Source of the DNA: [Limnothrix rosea] IAM M-220
Lineage (GTDB): Bacteria; Cyanobacteriota; Cyanobacteriia; Cyanobacteriales; MRBY01
DNA: 64,000 bases
Assembly (NCBI RefSeq): GCF_001904615.1
Contig: NZ_MRBY01000020.1
Coordinates: 846-64,845, forward strand
Direction: 5' to 3'
Positions 9,407-59,795 of this stretch are shown here, piece after piece. The notes beneath the pieces were generated by a model, which saw only the letters and a list, made by a program, of their open reading frames with translations, searched no databases and was not told the DNA's origin. Position numbers and translations under genes: made by a program. The stretch's first letter is position 1. Each line of letters opens with the position of its first letter.

Positions 9407-11092
9407 TTAAAACAGATCGATATCGGTTACAGCGCCTTTGCTGCTGGTAGAAACAATCTTTGCATATTTACCGAGGACACCACGTTTGTAACGGGGTTCA
9501 GGGGCTTTCCACTCAGCACGACGTTTTGCTAGTTCTTCATCAGAAACGTTGATTTGCAACAAAAGCTGATTGGCATCGATGGTGATGCTGTCGCCTTCTT
9601 GGACAAGGGCAATATTGCCGCCGACATAGGCTTCCGGTGCTACGTGACCAACCACGAGACCATAGGTTCCGCCAGAAAAACGACCGTCAGTAATTAGACC
9701 AACAGAATCTCCTAGACCTGCACCGATAATGGCGGAGGTGGGCGCAAGCATTTCGCGCATACCGGGGCCACCTTTGGGGCCTTCATAGCGGACAATTACA
9801 ACGTCACCTGCTTGGATTTTGCCGTCAAGGATCGCATCGAGACATTCTTCTTCAGACTCGAAAACTTTGGCGGGGCCGGTGATGACAGGCTTTTTCACGC
9901 CGCTAATTTTTGCGACGGAACCTTCTTGGGCAAGGTTACCTTTGAGGATGGCGAGGTGACCCACCTGATAAAGGGGATTGTCGAATTTGCGGATCACATC
10001 TTGATCGGCGGGTGGTTCGCTGGGGATGTCGGCAAGGTTTTCGGCAATGGTTTTTCCGGTAATGGTCATGCAGTCGCCATGTAATAAGCCTTGATCTAAG
10101 AGCATTTTCATCACTTGGGGAATGCCACCTGCTTTGTGGAGATCGGTGGCGACATATTTGCCGGAGGGTTTGAGGTCACAGAACACGGGTACGCGCTGAC
10201 GGATTTCTTCGAAGTCGTCAAGGGTGAGGGGCACACCAATCGTATTGGCGATCGCCAACAGGTGCAGCACAGAATTTGTTGAACCACCGACCGCCATGAT
10301 CACCGTGATCGCATTTTCAAATGCCTTGCGGGTGAGGATATCCTTCGGCAAAATCTGATGTTTGATCGCATTCACTAATGCCTTTGCAGAATCCTCTGCA
10401 CTTACTGCTTTCTCTTCATCTTCCGCTGCCATGGTGGAAGAGTAGGGCAGACTCATACCCATCGCCTCAAATGCTGAAGACATGGTATTTGCCGTAAACA
10501 TACCGCCACAGGAACCTGCGCCGGGACAAGCATTTTTCTCGATCGCCATTAATTTCTCTTCGGTGATCTTGCCTGCACTAAACTGACCCACCGCTTCAAA
10601 AGAACTAACCACCGTTAGATCTTCGCCGTCGAGGTGACCCGGTTTAATTGTGCCGCCATAGACAAAAATTGCGGGAATATTCATGCGGGCGATCGCCAAA
10701 ACAGCCCCCGGCATATTCTTGTCACAACCACCAATGGCAAGGACTGCATCCATACTTTGGCCATTACAAGCCGTCTCGATAGAATCCGCGATCACATCAC
10801 GGGAAACCAAGGAATATTTCATCCCCTCAGTCCCCATGGAGATGCCATCACTAATAGTGATCGTGCCAAACATTTGCGGCATTGCCCCCGCCTCCCGGAG
10901 CGCAGTCTCAGCCCGCAACGCCAGAGTATTTATCCCCATATTGCAAGGCGTAATCGTGCTGTACCCATTCGCCAGCCCCACAATCGGTTTTTTAAAATCA
11001 TCATCCCCAAAGCCCACAGCACGGAGCAGGGCTCGGTTTGGACTCCGTTGATGACCTTCAGTAACAACCCAACTACGACGATTTTCTCTCAT
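9407..11092 (-). CDS. ilvD: Dihydroxy-acid dehydratase
   Basis: 561 aa, full family length. Catalyses dehydration of 2,3-dihydroxy-isovalerate and 2,3-dihydroxy-3-methylvalerate in valine, isoleucine and leucine synthesis. Family signatures are present: [11 protein letters not shown] with one cluster Cys, [17 protein letters not shown] with two more, [15 protein letters not shown], and near the C-terminus [17 protein letters not shown] and [11 protein letters not shown] with the catalytic Ser region. ATG at 11092. A single gene, not in an operon with other branched-chain genes. Its codon use and HIP1 sites match the host chromosome, in contrast to the adjacent restriction-modification pair. 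Confidence 0.97.
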
Positions 11093-11192
11093 AACAAAAC
11101 AGAATAAATATGTACAGTTACATCAGAATAACGTTTATATTGTCTGTCGTTTTCGAGCTTTTGGGTAGTTTCGCACCGAATCAAAAGGCACA

Positions 11193-12551
11193 CTACACAG
11201 CCTTCGTAAAGGAATAATACTGACCCTCATTCACCGCCAAAGTTAAAATTACCTGTACCGTTTCGAGCAGACCCGTTAGCCATTCACATTCCGCCTTGGA
11301 TTTGTGGTGATAGTGCTGCATTAACTCATTGAGGGAGATCACTAGTTGTCCGTAGCTACGGGGTGAGACAAGGACTAGCTTGAGCAAAATAATGCCTAGG
11401 GACAGAAATTCCCGCTGGATCATTAGCAAGGTAAAAGGATGGGTCGGATCGGCAAAACTTTCAGGGTTGAGCAGATAGCGAATAATTTCATCGCAGGTTT
11501 TCGTGATCAGGTGATGGCCCACGGTCACACTATTTTTTTCAGGGTGGAGCTCTGCTAAATGCTGTTCTAGTTTTTGTGGTAACCATTTCAACCGGCGATC
11601 GCCACCAATGGAGATCAGCAAATATTTAACGAGTGCCTGTTTAAAATCACCATAAATATCATGCTCATGGAGAGCCAAAAAATCCTCAGCCATTTGCGGA
11701 TAGCCCTGATTGCGTTTCACCACAACCTTTTGGATTAGCTTCAAAGTCGCGGGATGGATGAATGTCGGATTGCGCACTTTTTCCTCATTCGGAGCCGCAT
11801 CGCACCCCTTAGCCAAAAACATGACAAGCTGAAACTTATAACGACTCTTCAGAAACTGATAAAGCCACTGACAAGCCTGGCGCTGTTCGATAGAAACTTC
11901 AGCATCAAAGGTTTGGGCGAGGAGCGTTAAAGTAACATAGCGGTCGTGCCAAGTTTTCTTTTGCAGTTTTACAGCCGGAGAAAATAACGCTAAGACTTTG
12001 TACTGACGACTATCCATGTAGCTTTCAACCCAATCCCGAAACTTACGGGTCGATAATGCCGCATTGGAAGCAAGGGGCGATCGCCCTTGAAATAGTCCCA
12101 TCAGCTTTTCAACATACTTTATTTTTTTCTGTAGAAAACAAGTATTAACAATTAAAAACGCACAGCGGTTTAACAGATAAATAAAATCAGCCGTACAGTT
12201 ATAAACCAACAACTGATAAATTGCATGATTTAGCTGGGCAGGAATACCACTCGGATCATGATTAATAAAGAAAATATCAAACTGCTCAAGTAGAGAAGAT
12301 ATCGAAGCCGTCCTACTCAGCTCCACAAAAAAGTTGAGGATTTCTTCACTTGCTTCAATAATTTCATCAGGCCGTTCATTTTGCTCAATAGCAGCGGCTT
12401 GACCCTCAAATGTTGCCTTAGGGTAGCCAATTTGCATTTCTGTAAACTGCTGAGGAGATGTTTGCTCCGGGCGACGGTGCCAAGCTAAAACCTTGTCTGA
12501 GGAAGTGTTTGGCAATTGGACTTTGCGTTTACGGAAACTAGGAGCAAACAT
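11193..12551 (-). CDS. Uncharacterised alpha-helical protein
   Basis: 452 aa from ATG 12551, preceded by AAGGAAAAA about 5 bases upstream; a longer open frame to 12656 runs through poorly coding sequence. No signal peptide or clear membrane segment. The predicted fold is almost entirely helical, with hydrophobic helices such as FDIFFINHD, LIYLLNRCAF-like segments and FLSLGIILLKLVLV. Sits 100 bases downstream (same strand) of nothing obvious and directly follows the ilvD promoter region. I do not recognise the family; cyanobacteria carry many such conserved unknowns. Confidence 0.65.
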   Translation of the reverse strand: MFAPSFRKRKVQLPNTSSDKVLAWHRRPEQTSPQQFTEMQIGYPKATFEGQAAAIEQNERPDEIIEASEEILNFFVELSRTASISSLLEQFDIFFINHDPSGIPAQLNHAIYQLLVYNCTADFIYLLNRCAFLIVNTCFLQKKIKYVEKLMGLFQGRSPLASNAALSTRKFRDWVESYMDSRQYKVLALFSPAVKLQKKTWHDRYVTLTLLAQTFDAEVSIEQRQACQWLYQFLKSRYKFQLVMFLAKGCDAAPNEEKVRNPTFIHPATLKLIQKVVVKRNQGYPQMAEDFLALHEHDIYGDFKQALVKYLLISIGGDRRLKWLPQKLEQHLAELHPEKNSVTVGHHLITKTCDEIIRYLLNPESFADPTHPFTLLMIQREFLSLGIILLKLVLVSPRSYGQLVISLNELMQHYHHKSKAECEWLTGLLETVQVILTLAVNEGQYYSFTKAV

Positions 12552-46997: not shown

Positions 46998-47025
46998 CTA
47001 AAATTTGAAAACTATTTAATTGGGT

Positions 47026-48990
47026 TTAACCGCGAAGTTTTTCGAGGACTGTGCGATCTTCGAGGGTGGAAGTATCCCCGGCAATCTCTTGACCCGCGGC
47101 AAGGTTACGCAACAAACGACGCATGATTTTACCGGAGCGAGTCTTTGGCATCACATCGGTAAAGCGGATTTCTCCGGGTCGGGCGATCGCCCCAATTTCT
47201 TTCACCACGTGGGCTTTTAACTCAGCTTCTAGCTCATCACTAGCGGGTTGACTACCTTCGAGGGTGACAAATGCAAACACCTCTTCGCCTTTTAGATCAT
47301 GGGGTTTGCCGACCACTGCCGCTTCCGCCACAGCTGGGTGGGACACAAGCGCTGATTCAATTTCCATTGTGCCGAGACGGTGACCGGAGACATTCATCAC
47401 ATCATCCACACGACCCATTACCCAGAAATAACCATCCTCATCACGCCGCGCCCCATCACCCGCAAAGTAGAGATATTTGCCATCGATGGGTGCAATATGT
47501 TCCCAATAGGTACTGCGGAACCGTTCGGGATTGCCGTAAACCGTGCGCATCATACCCGGCCAAGGCTGTTTCACGACGAGGTAACCGCCTTCATTATCAC
47601 CAGCGGGATTGCCATCTAGATCAACAATGTCTGCAACGATGCCGGGGAAAGGCAGGGTTGCGGAACCGGGTTTAGTAGGCGTTGCGCCGGGGAGAGGAGT
47701 CAACATTACGCCGCCTGTTTCGGTTTGCCACCAAGTATCCACAATGGGACAGCGATCGCCACCGATGACGCGGTTGTACCACATCCAAGCTTCGGGGTTA
47801 ATGGGCTCACCGACTGTGCCGAGCAAGCGCAACGAACTCATGTCATATTTATTCGGAATCTCCTCGCCCATCTTGATAAAGGCACGGATGGCAGTGGGTG
47901 CAGTGTAGAAAATCGTTACGCCATATTTTTCGATCACTTCCCAAAAACAGCCGGGGTTCGACGCACGGGGCGCACCTTCGTACATCACTGCCGTTGCGCC
48001 ATTGGAGAGGGGGCCATAGGTAATGTAACTATGTCCGGTAATCCAGCCGACATCTGCGCCGCACCAGTACACATCGTCATCTTTGAGGTCAAAAATCCAC
48101 TTGCAGGTCATGTGGGTGTAGAGGTTATAGCCGCCCGTCGTGTGAACTACGCCCTTGGGTTTTCCAGTTGTGCCGCTGGTGTAAAGAATGAAGAGCATAT
48201 CTTCTGCATCCATCGGTTCGGCGGGGCAATTTGCAGATACTTCTTTCTGCATTTCGTGCCACCAATGGTCACGGCCTTCGACCATTTCCACATCGCCTTT
48301 GGTGCGTTGGACGACTAAAACATTTTCCACACTGGGGGCAAAATCATCGGCGATCGCCGCATCGACTTGGGGCTTGAGGGGAACCACTTTATCCTTACGG
48401 AAACCACCATCAGCAGTAATCACCAACTTTGCTTCCGCATCTTCGAGACGACTGCGGAGAGCTTCGGCGCTAAATCCCCCAAAAATTACCGTATGGGGCG
48501 CACCAATTCTGGCACAGGCGAGCAAAGCAATCACCGCTTCGGGAATCATCGGCATGTAAATACCGACGCGATCGCCCTTTTGCACACCCAGTTTTTTCAT
48601 GGCATTGGCGAACTGACAAACCTCCCGGTGGAGTTGCGCGTAAGTCAGCGTCCGAGAATCACCCGGTTCCCCTTCCCAGATAAGAGCAGCTTTATTTTTG
48701 CGCCAAGTTTTCAGATGGCGATCGAGGCAATTATGGGAAATATTAATTTTGCCGCCGGAGAACCATTTTGCAAAAGGAGGCTGCCAATCGAGAACGGTAT
48801 CCCATTTCTCGAACCATTCCAGTTCCTGCTCTGCCAGTTCACCCCAAAATTTCTCCGGGTCATTTTTCGCAAAATCGTAGAGTTCTTGGTATTGCTCAAG
48901 GCTTTTGATATGCGCCTGTTCGGAAAATTCAGCAGGGGGCGCAAAGGTACGATTTTCGTGGAGGATCGATTCAATTGTTGGATCAGACAT
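47026..48990 (-). CDS. acs: Acetyl-CoA synthetase
   Basis: 654 aa, full length. Activates acetate to acetyl-AMP and then acetyl-CoA. P-loop-like motif [19 protein letters not shown], the WWQTETGG motif, [16 protein letters not shown] hinge region, and the C-terminal [12 protein letters not shown] holding the catalytic Lys that is inactivated by acetylation in homologues. ATG at 48990. Single gene with its own terminator. Confidence 0.97.
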
Positions 48991-49165
48991 ATCAACTTGT
49001 TATGACAAAATTTATGCCTACCTATTTTCCCTCAAGGTTAAGCCGACAAAGATTGCAATTCGTTAAGGATGGGGGAACAGGGGGCGATTCTAAACTCAGT
49101 CTTTCTATAAACTATGCACGACATTGCCACCCAATTCAACACAGGAGTAGTAATCATGAAACACC

Positions 49166-49414
49166 CTAGTGAGTCAAAAAGGCTTGAATCTCTGCTTTGC
49201 ACATTTCACGGGGATGCTTACCATTCTGATAAAGCAGATAACGTCGAATCCAGTCCAAATAACTCTGCTCAGTACGGTAGGAATGATACTTGAGACGAAT
49301 GAATTCGCGCACCACATCTAACAACTTATGCGATGGGATGATATCAGGCAAAATTTTAAAATCTTTGATATTGCCTTTTAAAGAGATGTTATGCGGATTT
49401 TTTTTGCACAACAC
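49166..49414 (-). pseudogene. Integron-type integrase, N-terminal relic
   Basis: 82 residues. The region LLDVVREFIRLKYHSYRTEQ followed by SYLDWIRRYLLYQNGKHPRE and EIQAFLTH corresponds to the N-terminal SAM-like DNA-binding domain of IntI-type tyrosine recombinases (the RLRHYSYRTEQAY and HPREMG patterns). The frame ends at TAG right after FLTH; the whole catalytic domain with the Arg, His and Tyr residues is absent, and the DNA after the stop shows no continuation. N-terminal residues 1-25 look non-homologous. It lies on the border of the accessory island. Confidence 0.8.
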
Positions 49415-49627
49415 TCTATATTTAGCTGTTTATGCAAGAATATTCTATGTGTAAAATAACAGAGAAGGCATTATATAGAAATCATCTGCATGATACGTAG
49501 TTGTGCCGCCTGAGTTATTGGTGAGGGCGTAGTGAAAGGTTGCCAGTTATGGCTTGAAATCCCTGGCATCTTTACAATCACGGGTACGATATTAGAGGTA
49601 ATACTAGGTCAAGTCTGAAATCTCAGT

Positions 49628-52540
49628 ATGCTGGAATGGGTTGCAGCCACAACGGGAATAGAACTAGGTAAGCTCGTACTAGAGCAGATTCTCGATTTGA
49701 GTAAACCTGTTTTGGAGGGGTATGTCCGAGATTTTTTCAAGGATTGCCTGAGTAGCGGAGTTAGCCGACTCAGTGCGACAGCACTGAAAACACCGATGGC
49801 GGAAGCAGTTGGCTACTTCATTAAGCGATTTATTAAGGAGCTTCAGATTAACGATGTTTACGAAACCAGTATTCAGCATCATTACAAAGCAGTAATCAAG
49901 AAGTTTGTGCAGGATAAGTCGGTCCGCCCCATTCTCGGAAAAGCCTTTGAAAAAGATTGTAAACAAATTGATTATGGGCAGTTAGAGCAAATTTGGGCAC
50001 AACAGTATCAAGTCTCTGGATGGCAATTTCCCTCAAAGGAGTTTGATTGGCGGGGAGTCTGCAAGGAATACGTATATGAGGTCAAGGGCATTGTTAAAGC
50101 GAATCCAGAGTTGCGATCGCTGCTTGAAACCGATCTATTAGAAGACATTGCCCGCAATACTGCCCAACTCTCGCCCGGCTTTGATGTTAAGACTTATCGA
50201 GCCAGTTTGCAGTCCAGTTATGGTTATCTGAAACTGTACACCCTCGACAGCACCGATCGCGTTGATGCCATTAAACTCTGGGCAATGTTTATTGAGCAAA
50301 CGGTGCGAGAAGCCTTACCCCCAATGCGCTATGACCTGCCTTTAGACTTGAAACGGCAACTGCAAGCTGAAGGGCAGCTCGAAGTAGATTTATCGCCCGA
50401 AGCCTTAAAGCATTATCGCCATGAGTATTTTCAGCAACCCGCACGAAAGGTTTTAGAAGTGGTAGCAGACTCTCATCGGGCAGTGATTTTAGGAGATCCA
50501 GGATCGGGTAAGTCGAGTCTATTGCAATATCTGGCACTGGAATGGGTCGATGGTAACACTGAGAGACTGCCGTTATTGATTGAGTTGCGAGAATTCGCCA
50601 TCAATCCATCTGTTAATTTCCTCGAATTTCTGCATCGAGGTCAGGGTGTGGACTGGCAATTTGACCAGCAGCAACTCCATCAGCATCTACTAGAGTCTTC
50701 AACGCTGGTTATGTTCGATGGGCTGGATGAGGTATTTGATCGCCCGACTCAATCCACTGTCATTGATGACATCATTCGCTTTTCGCAGCAATATCCCAAA
50801 GCTCAGGTGATAGTCACATCTCGCATTATTGGATATAACCCTGATCGCCTCCAGAATAGCAGTTTTCGACACTTCACCATTCAATCCCTCGATACCGACG
50901 AGATTCACGAGTTTATTGAGCGCTGGTATGACCTATCGATGGGTCGTGATCCTGATAAAGTGCGATTGAAACAGCGATTGAAGGATGCGATTGCTAATTC
51001 CAAGGCGATCGCCAACCTGGCAGATAATCCCCTGCTGCTGACAATGATGGTAATTTTGAATCGACGGCAGGAGTTACCGCGTGATCGCGCCGACCTCTAC
51101 GATCAGGCTTCTCGCGTGTTGCTCTACCACTGGGATGTGGATCATAAGCGATTGCAGATCCCGATGGATTCGATTGGGCGACGGGAGAAACAAGAGATGT
51201 TGCGCCTGATTGCTTACGAAATGCAGGCAGGAAAAAAAGGGCTGAAGGGGAATTTGATTAGTGCTGATCAACTCACCCGCATTTTGACTGAGTATCTACG
51301 CGATCAGGGCTTCAGCGAACCTCGCGAAAAAGCCAGTCGGTTGATTCAACAACTCCGAGAACGCAATTTCATCCTCTGCTATCGCGGAGCCGACACCTAT
51401 GGCTTCATGCATCGCACCTTTTTAGAATATTTCTGTGCCATTGAAATCGTCCATCGCTTCGAAAAACAACGCACCCTCACCTTTGAGGAATTACGCGATA
51501 AGGTGTTTGGACAACGCTGGCAAGATGAAACTTGGCATGAGGTGCTGAGATTGATTTGTGGGGCGATCGATCCAAAATTTTCAGCGCAAATAATCCAGTT
51601 TCTAATGGAGGTAGAAATAGATAGAACCCAGTTTCTAGATGATCCAAATATGTATCGACCCCCTGATAATTATCTCAAGCGTGAAGCTATAGGTAACCTT
51701 ACGCTTGCATCTCAGTGTCTTATGGAGATTAAAAATCGCAAGCAGGTAGTTGAGATTTCGGAAAAGCTATTAATGAAGTTCCAAGATGAAGTTGACAATC
51801 AGTTACCCTATCCTTTTGGAGCAGACGTTGCAAGGGTAATTGCAGATAATCTCACTTCTACTTGGCAGGGAAATATACAACTAACCGAATGGTTGAAAAA
51901 TGGTGTTGAAAGTGATAAAGATTGGCATTGGTTTGTAAGACGCGCAGTTTTTGCTATTGCCTGCAATTCTGGTAAAGATTCTAATACTTTAAATTGGCTT
52001 AAAAAGTTAGTACAGGAAGGTCATTCGGATTGGGGTGTGTGTGAATCAGCAGTAAATGCAGTCGCTCAATTCTGGAAAGAAAATAGCGATACATTACCTT
52101 GGCTTAAAGATTTAGTTCAGCACCATAAACTATGGGCAATTCGCAGAGGAGCTATGGAATGTTTGGTACGATACTGGAAAAATGATCCTGATGCTTTGCC
52201 AATTGTTGTAAAAATTGCTCAATCTGATGAAAATTGGGCAACTCGTCACTCTGCAGTAGAAACATTGTCTCAGTATTGGGGATGCAGCTCAGATTTATCT
52301 GATATTTTTAGTGAGATTGCAGTCAATGATCCTGGTGGTGAAAAAGGCTATCTAGAAGGAGATCCGCGTTGTGCTGCATTAGAAGCTCTCATAACTCACT
52401 ATCCTACCTATCCCAAAACGATCAAGCTGCTGCGCGATCACGCCATTAATGATCCTGATGAGCAACTGCGAGAATGGGCACAGGAACAGTTAAAAATACA
52501 TGATGCAAAAATAAAAATGGAGGCAAATTCTGATGGCTGA
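49628..52540 (+). CDS. NACHT-domain STAND NTPase with helical repeats
   Basis: 970 aa. Residues 1-230 form a helical N-terminal domain (opening MLEWVAATTGIELGKLVLEQ) like the NACHT-associated helical domains of bacterial NLR-like proteins. NACHT domain about 280-480: Walker A GDPGSGKSS at 289-297, Walker B LVMFDGLDEV with Asp364, Asp367 and Glu368, sensor QVIVTSRIIGY, and later NPLLLTMMV and HRTFLEYFCA, typical winged-helix landmarks. The C-terminal 330 residues carry HEAT-like repeats (WAIRRGAMECLVRYW, WATRHSAVETLSQYW). Related bacterial NACHT proteins protect against phage, but the gene could also be regulatory. It overlaps the next gene by 8 bases. Confidence 0.88.
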   Translation: MLEWVAATTGIELGKLVLEQILDLSKPVLEGYVRDFFKDCLSSGVSRLSATALKTPMAEAVGYFIKRFIKELQINDVYETSIQHHYKAVIKKFVQDKSVRPILGKAFEKDCKQIDYGQLEQIWAQQYQVSGWQFPSKEFDWRGVCKEYVYEVKGIVKANPELRSLLETDLLEDIARNTAQLSPGFDVKTYRASLQSSYGYLKLYTLDSTDRVDAIKLWAMFIEQTVREALPPMRYDLPLDLKRQLQAEGQLEVDLSPEALKHYRHEYFQQPARKVLEVVADSHRAVILGDPGSGKSSLLQYLALEWVDGNTERLPLLIELREFAINPSVNFLEFLHRGQGVDWQFDQQQLHQHLLESSTLVMFDGLDEVFDRPTQSTVIDDIIRFSQQYPKAQVIVTSRIIGYNPDRLQNSSFRHFTIQSLDTDEIHEFIERWYDLSMGRDPDKVRLKQRLKDAIANSKAIANLADNPLLLTMMVILNRRQELPRDRADLYDQASRVLLYHWDVDHKRLQIPMDSIGRREKQEMLRLIAYEMQAGKKGLKGNLISADQLTRILTEYLRDQGFSEPREKASRLIQQLRERNFILCYRGADTYGFMHRTFLEYFCAIEIVHRFEKQRTLTFEELRDKVFGQRWQDETWHEVLRLICGAIDPKFSAQIIQFLMEVEIDRTQFLDDPNMYRPPDNYLKREAIGNLTLASQCLMEIKNRKQVVEISEKLLMKFQDEVDNQLPYPFGADVARVIADNLTSTWQGNIQLTEWLKNGVESDKDWHWFVRRAVFAIACNSGKDSNTLNWLKKLVQEGHSDWGVCESAVNAVAQFWKENSDTLPWLKDLVQHHKLWAIRRGAMECLVRYWKNDPDALPIVVKIAQSDENWATRHSAVETLSQYWGCSSDLSDIFSEIAVNDPGGEKGYLEGDPRCAALEALITHYPTYPKTIKLLRDHAINDPDEQLREWAQEQLKIHDAKIKMEANSDG

Positions 52541-52772
52541 GGATACTGTGAAAGTAGATATTTCATTTCAATCACTTTTAGGAGCAATTTCATCACTAGG
52601 AATTGCTGAAAAGCATCGGCTTTGGGCGCTTCTGGAAGCTGAGTTATTCCCTGATGATGAAGATTCTCCGGAGGATATCGCTGAAATTCAAGCTGCCCGT
52701 GCTGACTACGAAGCAGGGGATTATATGACCTTTGATGAATACAAGGCGCACCGAGCAGAGCGATCAGCATGA
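52533..52772 (+). CDS. Antitoxin-like protein of a RelE pair
   Basis: 79 aa, acidic, no cofactor motif. The layout (short N-terminal strand VKVDISFQSLLGAIS, helices, then IAEIQAARADYEAGDYMTFD EYKAH-type tail) fits many antitoxins that precede RelE/ParE toxins. ATG at 52533 lies within the last codons of the NACHT gene; its own stop overlaps the toxin start by 4 bases. Role inferred from position. Confidence 0.75.
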   Translation: MAEDTVKVDISFQSLLGAISSLGIAEKHRLWALLEAELFPDDEDSPEDIAEIQAARADYEAGDYMTFDEYKAHRAERSA

Positions 52773-53029
52773 CCTATACCATCATCACACCGAAAGCTGT
52801 GCGAAAACAGCTGGATGTCTTGCCTGATGACGTTTACAATCGCATCGCTAAGAAGATTGACCAACTTGCCGAAGCTCCACGTCCTGATGGAGTGGTCAAG
52901 ATGAAAGGGTCTGATAATCAGTACCGTATTCGTATCGGTGACTATCGCGTTCGCTACGAAATCGATGATAAAGAATTGATTATTCTCCTCCTGCAATGCA
53001 AGCACCGAAAAGATGTTTATAAAAAGTGA
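52769..53029 (+). CDS. RelE/ParE-superfamily toxin
   Basis: 86 aa. Typical RelE fold signature: MTYTIITPKAVRKQLDVLP, then IAKKIDQLAEAPRPDG, VKMKGSDNQYRIRIGDYRVRY and a final strand ELIILLLQCKHRKDVYKK. RelE-type toxins cleave mRNA on the ribosome; the basic residues (Lys, Arg, His in the last 40 residues) are present. ATGA overlap with the antitoxin gene. Confidence 0.9.
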   Translation: MTYTIITPKAVRKQLDVLPDDVYNRIAKKIDQLAEAPRPDGVVKMKGSDNQYRIRIGDYRVRYEIDDKELIILLLQCKHRKDVYKK

Positions 53030-53265
53030 TAGTTCCTAGTTCTTGTCCCGTTGGAACATTTCGCAACCGTCGTTTGCACAACAGCCTTCTTGCAGCGGAT
53101 AGGTATAAATCCTCGGTGCTGAGTTCAAGGTTACTTGCCGCCGCTGAAGGGGAGCATTAGAATTTCGTACGGCGATCGCCGCTATAGTTACAAGTATTCT
53201 GGCATACTTGTTTTGCTTGAGTTACAAGATAGCATTAGAAAGAAGCCTAGCCCTGAGATTTAGCG

Positions 53266-53541
53266 ATGGATAGAAGCACCATAGAGCGGCAACAGATTCT
53301 GGAATCAGTCAGTGCTCTTCCCGAAGAGGATTTGATGGAACTTGCCAGTTTTCTTGACTACCTTCGCTACAAATCAGCCCAGAGCAGAGAAACAAAAAAT
53401 CAATCTGCTAATTTTTTAGTGGCAGTTGCAGGTTTAGGTAATTCTAATCAGCCAGATGTTTCAGAGCGGGATGAAGAGATTCTCCGCAATGAAGTTGATC
53501 CTGTGTATGGGTGGAGTTCCAAACCAAGCAATTCTGTATGA
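53266..53541 (+). CDS. VapB-like antitoxin (DUF2281-like)
   Basis: 91 aa. Begins MDRSTIERQQILESVSALPE and LMELASFLDYLRYKS, the helix pattern of the DUF2281/antitoxin family found before PIN-domain toxins. The C-terminal half is disordered. Its TGA overlaps the ATG of the PIN gene (ATGA). About 236 bases after the RelE gene. Confidence 0.78.
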   Translation: MDRSTIERQQILESVSALPEEDLMELASFLDYLRYKSAQSRETKNQSANFLVAVAGLGNSNQPDVSERDEEILRNEVDPVYGWSSKPSNSV

Positions 53542-53951
53542 CCGCAATACTCGATACCAGTTTTCTCTATGCCCTAACAGATCAGAGCGATCGCAACCAT
53601 CAACGGGTCTTGACTATTGCTCAAAGCGTAGATGAACGGTTAGTGCTGCCAGTAGTAGTTTTGCCCGAAGTTTGCTATCTGATTGCCTCAAGATTGGGGC
53701 ATCAAGCAATGCGTCGTTTTGTCTCCAACATGACACCTGATGCGGTTCAAGTTGAGCCTGTAATCCCAGAAGATTTAGCGCGAGCCCATGAGATTTTGGA
53801 ACAGTATGCCGATAATCAGCTTGATTTTACAGATGCGGCGATTGTTGCCATAGCTGAAAGACTTAATATCGCTCGTGTTTACACCCTTGACCGCCGAGAT
53901 TTCTCGATTATTCGTCCCAATCACTGCAATTACTTTGAGTTATTTCCGTGA
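53538..53951 (+). CDS. vapC: VapC-like PIN-domain toxin
   Basis: 137 aa from ATG 53538 (longer frame from 53511 overlaps the antitoxin). PIN-domain acids are visible: Asp6 in AILDTSFLYAL, Glu in VVLPEVCYLIAS, Asp in LDFTDAAIVAIAE and Asp in YTLDRRDFSII. These coordinate Mg2+ for RNA cleavage. Forms a toxin-antitoxin pair with the preceding gene. Confidence 0.9.
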   Translation: MTAILDTSFLYALTDQSDRNHQRVLTIAQSVDERLVLPVVVLPEVCYLIASRLGHQAMRRFVSNMTPDAVQVEPVIPEDLARAHEILEQYADNQLDFTDAAIVAIAERLNIARVYTLDRRDFSIIRPNHCNYFELFP

Positions 53952-54115
53952 ACTGCCAGCTAAGGCTGCAAGTGTAGAGTTCGAGTTCATCTGCTGTCAC
54001 TACATTTCATCGTGAGAAATTTGGATGGCGATCGCCACCCTCGCTAATTTTCTCAAAACTCCTACTATGCTGGAAACATATGTTGGATTTAGTCGGCTAA
54101 ACAGAGGCAAAATTC

Positions 54116-56358: not shown

Positions 56359-56492
56359 AAATATCTAAAAATAGAGGAAAAGAAAACAGAGACTCAGCAG
56401 AAATTCTTTGCTTTTTGTGACTAAATAAACTCCAAATTCCAAGTTCTAAAGTGGGGTCATTAGGATAGAAACGGACATGGATTTTGGTGGTT

Positions 56493-59400
56493 ATGAATAT
56501 CCGCTCTGCAACGTTTCTTTCTCTCGCTACAACGGTATTTTGCGCAGGGCTCAATGCCCCCTTACCAGCGAAATCGGCTGCGATTGTTGGCATCCCGACA
56601 CAACCGAAGCTTGAAACGGCCTTAATTTCCTCTCCCATGCCGCTCATTGCCCAGGCAGAAACTGCGACTCTATCTGCCGCAGCAGAAGCGCTGATTACAG
56701 AAGCTGTGGTTGCTTTTCAAACGGAAACTGAAGAGGGCTATAAATTGGCGATCGCCAACCTTGAAGTCGTCATTCCGGAAGTGGTCGCCAATGATTTTCC
56801 TGACGATATTGCCGTACTGTATCTGCTGTTGGGGCGTTCCTACGATCTATTGGGGCAAAACCAGACAGCTCTGGACTATTACGAAAGATCATTACCCTTT
56901 TATCGCGCTGCCGGAGATTTATTAGGGGAAGCCCGCGTTCTGAATAATATTGGCTTAGTGCTCAATGCCTTCGGTCAAAACCGTGAAGCCTTGGACTATT
57001 ACGAGCAATCTTTGCCTCTCTCGAAGCAGGTGGGTGACCTCGCTATGCAGGCGACAACCCTAAGCAATATGGGTTTGACCCATGACAACCTCAGTGAACG
57101 GGAAAAAGCCCTTGAGTTCTATCTCGCAGCGGTGGCGATCGCCGAAGAATTAGGTGATCAATCTATTCGGGGAACACTGCTCAACAATATTGGTTATGCC
57201 TATGATGCCCTAGGGGAAAAAGAAAAAGCCCTAGCTTTTTACGATGAAGCGCTGCCCTTACTGCGAGCTGTCAATAACCGCCGGATGGAAGCCACAGTCC
57301 TCAGTAATAAAGGGTTGGTCTATGGCTCCTTCGGCGATAAATTACAAGCCCTTGATTTCTATGGGCAGTCGTTGGCAATTATCCAAACCATTGGCGATCC
57401 GACCATGGAAGCGACAGTGCTCAATAATATCGGGTTAGCCTACGATGCCCTCGGTGAAAAACAACAAGCCCTCGATGCCTATCAAACATCTTTGCCCCTA
57501 TCGGAAGCGGGTGGAGCAAGAAAAATGGTGGGCACAACCCTTGGCAATATTGGCTTAGTTTATTATTCCCTCGGCGAATATGAGCAAGCTTTGGAATTTT
57601 ACGAACAGTCTCTTGGGTTCTCTCGTGAGGTGGGCGATCGCCAAATGGAAGCCACAACCCTCAATAATTTGGGGTTAACCTATCAAGTCCTCGGAGAACA
57701 ACAACTCAATGAAGATTTTTTAATTCAGTCAATAACCTTCTATCGCGAATCCCTCGACCTCTCCATAGCCGTGGGCGATCGCCGGATGACTGCAACGACC
57801 TTGAATAATTTGGGATTAATTTATGCATTATTGGATAGCCCAGAAGAAACCCTAGAAGTGTTTAATACTGCCTTACCGATTATTCGGGCGGTGGGCGATC
57901 GCCGCATGGAAGCGACTACTCTCGCCAATATCGGCTTAATTTATGGCGAAACGGGGGAATATGAGCAGGCGCTAAATTTTTATAATCAAGCCCTACCCCT
58001 TGCCCAAGCTGTTGGAGATCGCAGTGCAGAAGCTTTAACCCTCGTCAATATCGCAACGGTGGAGTACGAACAAGGCCAGCCAGAAAATGCCCTCGCCACC
58101 ATGGAAGCGGCGATCGCCATCGTCGAGGATTTGCGCACAAAAATTATCAGTCCAGAGTTGCGCCAGAGCTACTTTGCCACCGTGCAAACCTATTATCAGT
58201 TTTACATCAAATTATTAATGGAGCTGGATCAGCAAAATCCGGGTCAAGGCTATGCCCAACTCGCCTTTGCCGCTAGCGAAAAATCCCGCGCCCGTACTCT
58301 CCTCGAACTCCTCACCGAAGCGAATACAGACATTAGAACCGGCATTGATCCCACTTTACTAGAACAGGAAAAAACACTCCTCGCCCAACTCAGCGCAACG
58401 GAAGCCGAGCGCATTGAAATTTACGGTACAAACCAAAGTACAGATGCTGAAAAGATCGAAATCGATCAAACCCTATCGACTTTAGTGACAGAATACGAAG
58501 CGCTACAGGATCGTATCCGCCGCCTTAGCCCCAATTACGCCAACCTAAAATATCCCCAAACCCTTGATGTCGAGGCCTTACAAACTCAAATCCTTGATGA
58601 GGATACTATTTTGCTGCAATATGCCCTCGGCAAGGAAAAAAGCTATCTCTGGGCAGTCACAAAAACAGACTTCACAAGCTACGAATTACCAGCTCGCCAT
58701 GTGCTAGACCCGCTGATTGACGAAGCCCGTCAACAGATTACCGATGCCCGCGAAGGTCTCCCACCACCACGCCAACGCCAGCGGGAACAAGTACGCCAAG
58801 CTGCTCTACTGGCTTTAAGTCAGGAAATTCTTGCCCCCGCCATAGCTCAGTTACAGGACAAGCGAATTCTCGTCGTTGCTGACGGAAATTTACACTATTT
58901 GCCCTTCAGCGCCCTCAGCAGTACTCCAGAATATGCCCCCCTCGGCGATCGCCACGAAATCATTAATTTACCTTCCGCTTCCACCCTCGCTATTTTGCGG
59001 CAAAAGACAATTCCTTCGATCAAAGCAGATTCATCTCTCGCTATTCTTGCAGATCCCGTTTTCAACCATGCGGATTGTCGCCTTGGTAGTGCCAATACTA
59101 ATTGTGTTAATCCGCCCCAACCCCAAAAGAATTTAGATCTAGATCTAACCGATGGTGATCCTCTTGAGTTGTTGGCTCTAAAGCGCTCTGCCAGTACTTT
59201 TTCCCAGGTGAATTGGGATCGTCTCCCCGGCACTCGCACTGAAGCCCAAGGGATTTTGGCGCTGCTACCCGACGATGTTGATACATTTCAGGCTTTTGAT
59301 TTTGATGCCAGTCGCGATGTTTTAACGGGCGATCGCCTCCAAGATTACGATCTCATTCACATTGCCACCCACGGTTTTCTCAATGCCAACGAACCGGAAT

Positions 59401-59795
59401 TATCGGGTTTAGTTTTGTCGTTGTTTGATGAAAATCAACAGCTCCAAAATGGTTTTTTACGCCTTAACGATGTATTTAACCTCAAGCTCAATGCCAATCT
59501 TTTGGTGCTCAGTGCCTGCGAAACAGGTCTGGGAGAAAATGTGCAGGGGGAAGGATTAGTCGGCCTCAGTCGAGGTTTTATGTATGCCGGAGTGCCAAGA
59601 ATCGTGATGAGTTTATGGCAAGTCAGTGACGAGGCAACGGCTGAATTTATGACCCGTTTTTACCAGAATTTACTCGAAGACCAAATGACAGCGGCGATCG
59701 CCCTCCAAGAAACCCAACGGGAAATGCGTGAAGAAACCCGCTGGACACATCCTTACTATTGGTCAGCGTTTATCTTGCAAGGAGAATGGCAATAA
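56493..59795 (+). CDS. Exported TPR-CHAT protein (caspase-like)
   Basis: About 1100 aa from ATG 56493; TTG 56484 and GTG 56487 also open the frame. An N-terminal signal peptide (ATFLSLATTVFCAGLNAPLP) is followed by about ten tetratricopeptide repeats (residues 60-540, repeating NNIGLxYdaLGEkeqALdFYeqSLpl with GDRxMEATTL). A linker leads to a CHAT domain (about 690-1098), a caspase-like fold, with catalytic His960 in IHIATHGFLNANEPE and Cys1009 in LVLSACETGLGEN. TPR-CHAT proteins act as proteases in several defence and stress systems, but the predicted export argues for an envelope role here. No obvious partner gene adjoins it. Confidence 0.88.
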   Translation: MNIRSATFLSLATTVFCAGLNAPLPAKSAAIVGIPTQPKLETALISSPMPLIAQAETATLSAAAEALITEAVVAFQTETEEGYKLAIANLEVVIPEVVANDFPDDIAVLYLLLGRSYDLLGQNQTALDYYERSLPFYRAAGDLLGEARVLNNIGLVLNAFGQNREALDYYEQSLPLSKQVGDLAMQATTLSNMGLTHDNLSEREKALEFYLAAVAIAEELGDQSIRGTLLNNIGYAYDALGEKEKALAFYDEALPLLRAVNNRRMEATVLSNKGLVYGSFGDKLQALDFYGQSLAIIQTIGDPTMEATVLNNIGLAYDALGEKQQALDAYQTSLPLSEAGGARKMVGTTLGNIGLVYYSLGEYEQALEFYEQSLGFSREVGDRQMEATTLNNLGLTYQVLGEQQLNEDFLIQSITFYRESLDLSIAVGDRRMTATTLNNLGLIYALLDSPEETLEVFNTALPIIRAVGDRRMEATTLANIGLIYGETGEYEQALNFYNQALPLAQAVGDRSAEALTLVNIATVEYEQGQPENALATMEAAIAIVEDLRTKIISPELRQSYFATVQTYYQFYIKLLMELDQQNPGQGYAQLAFAASEKSRARTLLELLTEANTDIRTGIDPTLLEQEKTLLAQLSATEAERIEIYGTNQSTDAEKIEIDQTLSTLVTEYEALQDRIRRLSPNYANLKYPQTLDVEALQTQILDEDTILLQYALGKEKSYLWAVTKTDFTSYELPARHVLDPLIDEARQQITDAREGLPPPRQRQREQVRQAALLALSQEILAPAIAQLQDKRILVVADGNLHYLPFSALSSTPEYAPLGDRHEIINLPSASTLAILRQKTIPSIKADSSLAILADPVFNHADCRLGSANTNCVNPPQPQKNLDLDLTDGDPLELLALKRSASTFSQVNWDRLPGTRTEAQGILALLPDDVDTFQAFDFDASRDVLTGDRLQDYDLIHIATHGFLNANEPELSGLVLSLFDENQQLQNGFLRLNDVFNLKLNANLLVLSACETGLGENVQGEGLVGLSRGFMYAGVPRIVMSLWQVSDEATAEFMTRFYQNLLEDQMTAAIALQETQREMREETRWTHPYYWSAFILQGEWQ

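What the first reader, a model, noticed from the sequence alone, without database searches (positions are those of the whole stretch)
49628..53029. NACHT NTPase fused by overlap to a RelE-type toxin-antitoxin pair
The NACHT STAND gene ends 8 bases inside the antitoxin gene, which in turn overlaps the RelE toxin by ATGA. Three cistrons with coupled translation suggest one functional unit, in which the NLR-like sensor could control or trigger the toxin, or the toxin-antitoxin pair could guard the locus against loss. Bacterial NACHT proteins are known phage defence genes, but I do not recall one organised with a RelE pair. The HEAT-like C-terminus is a plausible sensor.
Basis: partly seen in the sequence, partly recalled or inferred. 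Interest (0 to 1): 0.75.

Follow-up and report, generated by a model that had tools for sequence, protein, structure and literature searches.

The report
Immune-receptor gene with swappable toxin–antitoxin cassettes
A cyanobacterial gene resembling the immune receptors of animals and plants (a NACHT/NLR-type protein) ends directly in a toxin–antitoxin pair, and comparing about a hundred relatives shows that this spot behind the gene is a recurrent docking place for interchangeable toxin–antitoxin pairs, often stacked in arrays separated by copies of the receptor gene's own tail end; this arrangement does not appear to have been described before.

Summary
NACHT gene 49628-52540, antitoxin 52533-52772 (8-nt overlap) and RelE/ParE toxin 52769-53029 (ATGA overlap) are intact and co-oriented. 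The pairing is not a one-off. Among 31 close NACHT relatives (at least 48% identical), 23 have a toxin–antitoxin (TA) gene within 500 bp downstream on the same strand, against 3 of 198 other large genes. RelE is only one of at least seven TA types found there (several RelE/ParE, VapBC, HicAB, HigBA, a PIN-like pair, DUF2283- and MNT-linked pairs), and TA type changes at least 24 times on the NACHT tree. The receptor has a conserved engine (residues 1-650), a hypervariable HEAT sensor (~20% identity even where engines are 99% identical) and a conserved last repeat ('cap'). Fragments of the cap-coding DNA recur behind each TA cassette in 15 of 31 relatives, giving arrays NACHT-cap|TA|cap'|TA|cap''. 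TA cassettes thus appear to be exchanged by recombination at the gene's 3' tip, as in polymorphic-toxin loci. The window copy has one cap, one RelE pair, an attC-like site, VapBC and an integron-integrase remnant, on a ~5-kb island missing from a congener. TAs most likely act as addictive cassettes that anchor the locus; a NACHT-triggered effector role is possible but unproven.

The parts
49166..49414 (-). 82-aa N-terminal remnant of an integron integrase (IntI), divergent from the NACHT gene
   Evidence: PF13495 E 7e-13; TIGR02249 integrase_gron positions 1-52/315, E 1e-10; only copy in the genome
49628..52540 (+). NACHT (STAND/NLR-type) NTPase gene, 970 aa
   Evidence: profile hits NLRC4 and NOD2 structures; AlphaFold model matches NLRP folds
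49700..50248 (+). NNH2 N-terminal helical domain (aa 25-207)
   Evidence: PF22734 E 4e-56
50480..50929 (+). NACHT domain (aa 285-434); Walker A GDPGSGKS 50492-50515, Walker B LVMFDGLDE about 50705-50731
   Evidence: PF05729; motif residues invariant or nearly so in 39 homologues
51605..52327 (+). hypervariable HEAT-repeat region (aa ~660-900), inferred sensor
   Evidence: ~20-30% identity between homologues whose first 640 aa are 88-99% identical; PF13646; helical solenoid, pLDDT ~90
52361..52504 (+). conserved C-terminal 'cap' coding sequence (..LLRDHAINDPDEQLREWAQEQL), the segment repeated behind TA cassettes in relatives
   Evidence: profile hit in own genome; its last 50 nt are 84-92% identical between loci with different sensors and different TAs
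52533..52772 (+). antitoxin, 79 aa, no Pfam family
   Evidence: partner gene of RelE in relatives
52769..53029 (+). RelE/ParE-superfamily toxin, 86 aa
   Evidence: PF05016 43 bits; aligns with E. coli RelE (4v7k) and P. horikoshii 1wmi
53073..53166 (+). attC-like hairpin site directly behind the toxin
   Evidence: covariance model R1, 97 bits (the window copy is in the training set); same element behind TAs in L007, L012, L005; single copy in own genome
53266..53541 (+). VapB-like (DUF2281-type) antitoxin of a second TA pair
   Evidence: weak PF10047 / NF050009 hits, below cut-offs; overlaps the PIN gene
53511..53951 (+). VapC-like PIN toxin of a second TA pair
   Evidence: PF01850 E 2e-15
49068..54030 (.). 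island (IntI remnant + NACHT + RelE pair + attC-like site + VapBC) absent from a same-genus genome, where ~0.78 kb of other DNA lies between the same flanks
   Evidence: G005 aligns at window 47025-49067 (84%) and from 54031 (88%)

Best explanation
An NLR-like NACHT immune-receptor gene whose 3' tip serves as a recombination platform for exchangeable toxin-antitoxin cassettes. Shown here: (1) the gene has a conserved NNH2-NACHT engine, a hypervariable HEAT sensor and a conserved last repeat (cap); (2) directly behind the cap, on the same strand, relatives carry non-homologous TA pairs that change far more often than the engine; (3) about half of the close relatives carry further copies of the cap-coding 3' end, each starting 0-16 nt behind a TA stop codon in nearly all cases, i.e. 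arrays of cassettes [~100-nt copy of the NACHT 3' end + 30-60 nt + TA]. Each newcomer restores the NACHT end and pushes the old end plus old TA downstream; recombination between cap copies switches or deletes TAs. The TA acts mainly as an addiction module: loss of the locus, or its transcriptional collapse during infection, frees the toxin. It thus stabilises a costly, fast-evolving defence gene and itself as a selfish cassette. In the window the resident cassette is a RelE pair that carries an attC-like site and so probably came from an integron.
For: TA next to NACHT: 23/31 close relatives and 17/73 other NNH2 genes versus 3/198 control genes (P 8e-22 and 3e-8). Unbiased Pfam counts: downstream ORFs give ParE 8, RelE 4, PIN 3 (+1 PIN_3), HigB 2, HicA 1, AF2212 3; no such toxin family appears among the upstream families listed. 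Seedless test: 4 of 20 close antitoxin homologues in 390 genomes lie behind an NNH2 gene versus 0.004 expected (P 5e-12), and four more lie behind a cap. At least 24 TA-type changes on the engine tree. Cap repeats: 15/31 relatives, none on the minus strand, one upstream (after removing false hits), versus 2/206 control genes (14/31 by the same simple BLAST). Arrays read gene by gene. Identity jumps at the cap: pairs with the same TA mostly stay 71-92% identical into the TA genes, pairs with different TA fall to ~30% right after a cap whose last 50 nt are 84-92% identical. The window and G134 (NACHT region only 24% identical) share cap, tail and TA. ~5-kb island, empty site in a congener.
Against: No functional data: neither toxicity, neutralisation, defence nor recombination has been tested. 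The window itself has only one cap and no array. Eight of 31 close relatives have no recognised TA within 500 bp, and others have only remnants, so the addiction is at least leaky. Operon transcription is inferred from overlaps only; an internal TA promoter was not excluded (one search finds no more promoter-like sites than chance). Most genomes are drafts or MAGs, although arrays also occur in isolates (Nodosilinea nodulosa PCC 7104, Nodosilinea sp. P-1105, Stenomitos frigidus ULC18). The TA profile set was seeded from downstream genes, a bias that the Pfam and antitoxin tests avoid. The quick tree has open forks and some long branches.
Confidence: 0.55

Rival explanations
1. The TA pair is the effector arm of the receptor: on sensing infection the NACHT oligomer (or the translation or energy collapse it causes) removes the labile antitoxin and frees the toxin, giving abortive infection; swapping TAs diversifies effectors in the same way as the HEAT region diversifies sensing.
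For: Tight same-strand coupling with overlaps; hypervariable sensor plus variable downstream toxin resembles receptor/effector diversification; NNH2 has no recognised enzymatic effector domain; toxins in first position are often intact (RelE, VapC, HicA, HigB).
Against: The TA families are structurally unrelated and come in both gene orders, so no common protein interface is likely; intact NACHT genes persist with only antitoxin remnants or no TA (L013, L015, L019, L014, L017, L076, L168); TA type assorts independently of engine and sensor.
Confidence: 0.22
2. Neutral hot spot: the 3' end of the NACHT gene is simply a tolerated landing site in a defence island rich in TA modules, with cap repeats as by-products of recombination and no functional bond.
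For: Decayed TAs and remnants are frequent; TA genes are common in these genomes (5 ParE, 20 PIN in the own genome); RAYT-like transposase genes also sit in some arrays.
Against: Strong specificity for TA genes, strand and distance; exact junctions, with cap copies starting 0-16 nt behind TA stop codons in nearly all cases; other large genes in the same loci do not show it.
Confidence: 0.18
3. Integron origin: NACHT-TA is a gene cassette of a decayed chromosomal integron, and the TA is just the usual array-stabilising cassette of integrons.
For: IntI remnant directly upstream and divergent; attC-like site behind the RelE pair, also behind TAs in L005, L007, L012 and G134; TA pairs are a known component of chromosomal integron cassette arrays (PMC4537255, PMC11551772).
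Against: No attC lies between NACHT and TA, where the exchange happens; IntI similarity was found in no other NACHT locus; the attC model finds sites in only 6 of 80 searched sources (window, L004, L005, L007, L010, L012), so it cannot explain the cap arrays.
Confidence: 0.1

Closest known systems
Bacterial NACHT/NLR-related defence proteins (bNACHT; STAND NTPases)
   Same: Central NACHT NTPase, N-terminal helical domain, C-terminal solenoid sensor; profile and fold match NLRC4, NOD2 and NLRP proteins. bNACHT phage defence is established for other clades (PMC12169576).
   Different: NNH2 clade of cyanobacteria; misses the curated cut-offs of the named antiphage NACHT families by far (EruA 47.7 of 1000 bits, DS8 33 of 790). 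The TA cassette behind the gene and the cap arrays are not mentioned in the papers found.
Polymorphic toxin (CDI/Rhs) loci with displaced 3' cassettes
   Different: Here the gene is an immune receptor, not a secreted toxin; what is exchanged is a complete TA pair plus the last codons of the gene; downstream copies carry only the cap (~60-110 nt), not a toxin domain of the gene.
CreTA guards of CRISPR-Cas
   Same: A toxin-antitoxin module tied to a defence locus and protecting it from loss (PMC9458426, PMC10097628).
   Different: CreTA is an RNA toxin repressed by the CRISPR effector itself; here ordinary type II protein TAs of many families, with no sign that NACHT represses the toxin.
Chromosomal integron TA cassettes
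   Same: TA pairs as stabilising cassettes; IntI remnant and attC-like site in the window.
   Different: The repeats of the arrays are NACHT 3'-end copies, not attC; there is no complete integron.

Membership tests
NNH2-type bacterial NACHT (NLR-related) protein | NNH2 domain followed by a NACHT NTPase with Walker A and B motifs | tested here: met
   (PF22734 190 bits, PF05729 50 bits); GDPGSGKS and LVMFDGLDE, conserved in 39 homologues
NNH2-type bacterial NACHT (NLR-related) protein | C-terminal repeat sensor | tested here: met
   HEAT_2, solenoid model, hypervariability; that it senses anything is inferred
Named antiphage NACHT families (EruA, DS8, PADLOC models) | score above the curated cut-off | tested here: not met
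   47.7/1000 and 33/790 bits; only weak PDC-S60 and mad8 partial hits
Named antiphage NACHT families (EruA, DS8, PADLOC models) | protects against phage | not testable with these tools
   needs an experiment
RelE/ParE toxin superfamily | ParE_toxin/RelE domain above cut-off | tested here: met
   PF05016 43.4 bits, cut-off 23
RelE (ribosome-dependent mRNA interferase) | RelE_StbE curated model | tested here: not met
   TIGR02385 20.3 bits, below 27.9
RelE (ribosome-dependent mRNA interferase) | conserved basic residues and C-terminal Tyr of the RelE active site | tested here: inconclusive
   alignment to E. coli RelE (4v7k) keeps basic positions in YRIRIGDYR and HRKDVY; activity untested
Chromosomal integron | complete intI gene | tested here: not met
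   82-aa fragment only, no other copy in the genome
Chromosomal integron | attC sites (hairpin bounded by RYYYAAC / GTTRRRY) | tested here: inconclusive
   hairpin family with such boxes in 12 aligned copies, but the window copy has degenerate boxes and no array
Polymorphic-toxin-like 3'-tip cassette exchange | displaced copies of the gene's 3' end followed by further cassettes | tested here: met
   15 of 31 close relatives; not in the window copy, which has a single cap
Polymorphic-toxin-like 3'-tip cassette exchange | secreted or contact-delivered toxin | tested here: not met
   the domains found are NTPase and HEAT repeats; no secretion domain
CreTA-type guard of a defence system | toxin repressed by the defence machinery itself | not tested
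   needs an experiment; the toxins here are proteins with their own antitoxins

The most novel reading that the evidence does not exclude
A three-module shuffling immune locus: one conserved NLR-type engine recombines with exchangeable HEAT sensors on one side of a fixed ~50-100-nt cap sequence and with exchangeable TA cassettes on the other. The 3' coding end of the receptor acts as the repeat of a TA cassette array, a gene-capture device built on an immune receptor gene and not on a dedicated recombinase platform.
Probability: 0.7. Interest if true: 0.88.

Novelty: new variant of a known kind. Interest (0 to 1): 0.8.

Why it matters
It gives a concrete, recurrent genomic link between NLR-like immune receptors and toxin–antitoxin systems, and a natural experiment in modular evolution: engines up to 99% identical with sensors ~20% identical and unrelated TAs behind them. 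If the TAs anchor the receptor gene, this is a general answer to how costly defence genes are retained. If they are effectors, it is a plug-in effector port for bacterial NLRs. Either way the cap repeats make recombination and cassette turnover directly measurable in cultured cyanobacteria.

Tried and rejected
A shared 3' flank behind different TAs was first read as locus homology; it proved to be an attC-like element present in 122 of 390 genomes. The 19-nt inverted repeat 49650/53035 looks like chance (my estimate ~0.1 expected). Rfam: nothing. tRNA: none. Promoter and terminator scan: no excess. Plasmids: only distant NACHT relatives (<60%), so no plasmid home found. Some 'displaced caps' (L024, L027 at 7803, L063, L069, L072, L129 and similar) were judged to be the true caps of frameshifted NACHT genes and were excluded. 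The TA profiles built from downstream seeds are biased, so Pfam counts of all ORFs on both sides and an antitoxin-only genome search were added. I considered a diversity-generating retroelement for the HEAT region: replacement by ~20%-identical repeats does not look like site-wise mutagenesis; I did not search for a reverse transcriptase.
Full report
OBSERVATION. The large gene encodes NNH2 + NACHT + HEAT. A profile of 39 homologues matches NLRC4 and NOD2 among solved structures, and the AlphaFold model (mean pLDDT 77, solenoid ~90) finds NLRP proteins as its best NLR folds, with low whole-chain TM-scores. The small genes are an unclassified antitoxin and a ParE/RelE-superfamily toxin.

IS THE PAIRING MORE THAN CHANCE? 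79 homologous loci came from one genome scan. An independent sample came from a Pfam NNH2 search of 390 cyanobacterial genomes (104 genomes with a match), from which about 96 regions were read. After removing near-duplicates, 110 NACHT genes remain. Close relatives (at least 47-48% identity; 31 with enough downstream DNA) have a TA gene within 500 bp downstream on the same strand in 23 cases; other NNH2 genes in 17 of 73; other genes of at least 300 aa in the same loci in 3 of 198. Because those TA profiles were seeded from downstream genes, two unbiased tests were added. (i) Pfam scans of all same-strand ORFs downstream (95) and upstream (72) of the close relatives: roughly 18-19 toxin-family hits downstream (some ORFs may match more than one family); none of those toxin families among the upstream families shown, where only single antitoxin-type hits occur (7 of 32 upstream families are not displayed). 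(ii) The window antitoxin searched in 390 genomes: 4 of its 20 closest homologues sit behind an NNH2 gene, 0.004 expected; four more sit directly behind the conserved NACHT cap.

NOT ONE TA BUT MANY. Immediately behind the NACHT stop lie: the window's antitoxin+RelE (also L009; in a later position in L007, L033, L146), another RelE pair (L010, L170), AF2212+VapC (L004, L025, L177; the antitoxin also in L011; in L027 further down the array), a PIN-like pair (L005, L006, L012, L031, L034), HigBA (L021, L175), HicAB (L020 and many Nostocales), RelE with other antitoxins (L007, L008, L018, L023), a DUF2283-linked pair (L276) and an MNT-type gene (L040). On a tree of the first 640 residues, TA type changes at least 24 times among TA-bearing tips. 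The window's nearest neighbour by engine (92% identical) carries the PIN-like pair, not RelE. That tree is a quick one with open forks, and the TA labels were assigned by hand, so the number is approximate; but pairs over 90% identical with unrelated TAs are visible directly.

THREE MODULES. Residues 1-650 are about 80-98% identical among the nearest homologues, residues 660-900 about 10-35%, and residues 905-955 again roughly 45-73%. L012 and L006 share 99% of the engine and 21% of the sensor. Sensors assort independently: L004/L005 share a sensor (64%) with different TAs; L012/L015 (55%) and L007/L013 (50%) likewise. DNA comparison across the junction shows the breakpoint. For pairs with the same TA, identity rises at the cap and mostly stays high through the TA genes; for pairs with different TAs it collapses right behind the cap, whose last 50 nt are 84-92% identical. 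The window and G134 have very different NACHT regions (24%) but share cap, tail and TA.

CAP REPEATS AND ARRAYS. A profile of the cap found extra copies downstream at regular spacing. DNA profiles show the repeats are fragments of the NACHT 3' coding end, same strand, in nearly all cases starting 0-16 nt behind a TA stop codon and ending at the same position of the cap. Example L276 (G318 contig 149): cap | 89-aa gene + DUF2283 | cap | DUF2281 + ParE | cap | antitoxin + ParE | cap | HigA-like | cap. L277: cap | HigBA | cap | VapBC | cap. L026, L031 and L146 have four or more copies. 15 of 31 close relatives carry such copies. With one simple BLAST criterion the rate is 14/31 against 2/206 for other large genes. 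[quoted passage not shown]

THE WINDOW COPY. It has one cap, one RelE cassette, an attC-like hairpin 44 nt behind the toxin, a VapBC pair, and, upstream and divergent, an 82-aa remnant of an integron integrase. In same-genus genome G005 the flanks (window up to 49067 and from 54031) enclose 0.78 kb of other DNA instead of this ~5-kb island. The attC-like element follows the same antitoxin-RelE pair in L007 and G134 as well, so this cassette may have come from an integron. The attC model was trained on these copies, so its scores on them are not independent evidence.

HOW IT PROBABLY WORKS. Shown: sensor hypervariability, TA exchange, cap repeats, strand and distance bias. Inferred: cassettes integrate and switch by recombination in the cap; the TA acts mainly as an addiction module that keeps the locus (and itself). 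Against an obligatory effector role: unrelated TA families in both gene orders, and intact NACHT genes with decayed or missing TAs. Functional coupling is not excluded. My probabilities: genetic organisation as described ~0.9; addiction as main role ~0.5; effector ~0.22; neutral hot spot ~0.18.

NOVELTY. Searches of 5.4 million open papers found no report of NACHT genes with TA cassettes or of such arrays; subscription papers are not covered. Each component is known; the combination is, as far as I could test, new.

Noticed in passing
window 49166-49414 (-) and 53073-53166 (+): Integron-integrase remnant and attC-like site bracketing the NACHT-RelE operon, each single-copy in the genome; the attC-like element family occurs in 122 of 390 cyanobacterial genomes.
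   Followed up: partly
window 53266-53951: Second TA pair (VapB-like/VapC PIN) directly behind the attC-like site, with no cap repeat before it.
   Followed up: partly
L230 (G134), L231-L233: The same cap-tail-antitoxin-RelE unit sits behind a different NACHT engine (24% identical) or where no full NACHT gene was found, so the cassette also occurs away from this NACHT family.
   Followed up: partly
G270:C3, G353:C1, G162:C86, G217:C1: Cap sequence at the end of 680-940-aa proteins at places without an NNH2 hit; other receptor types may use the same cap.
   Followed up: no
L022, L023, L026: RAYT-like (Y1_Tnp) transposase genes inside or beside the TA arrays.
   Followed up: no
L214 ~10900-11550 (G005): An unrelated membrane-like ORF of roughly 200 aa (read by eye) occupies the equivalent site between acs and the right flank in a same-genus genome.
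   Followed up: no
L040:5038-5418: MntA-type nucleotidyltransferase antitoxin (type VII TA) 7 nt behind a distant NNH2 NACHT gene.
   Followed up: no
window 49650-49668 / 53035-53053: 19-nt inverted repeat, 17 of 19 complementary, near the NACHT start and just behind the toxin; probably chance.
   Followed up: no
window 56484-59795: Large ORF with tetratricopeptide-like repeats and a C-terminal region resembling CHAT peptidases (read by eye, not scanned).
   Followed up: no
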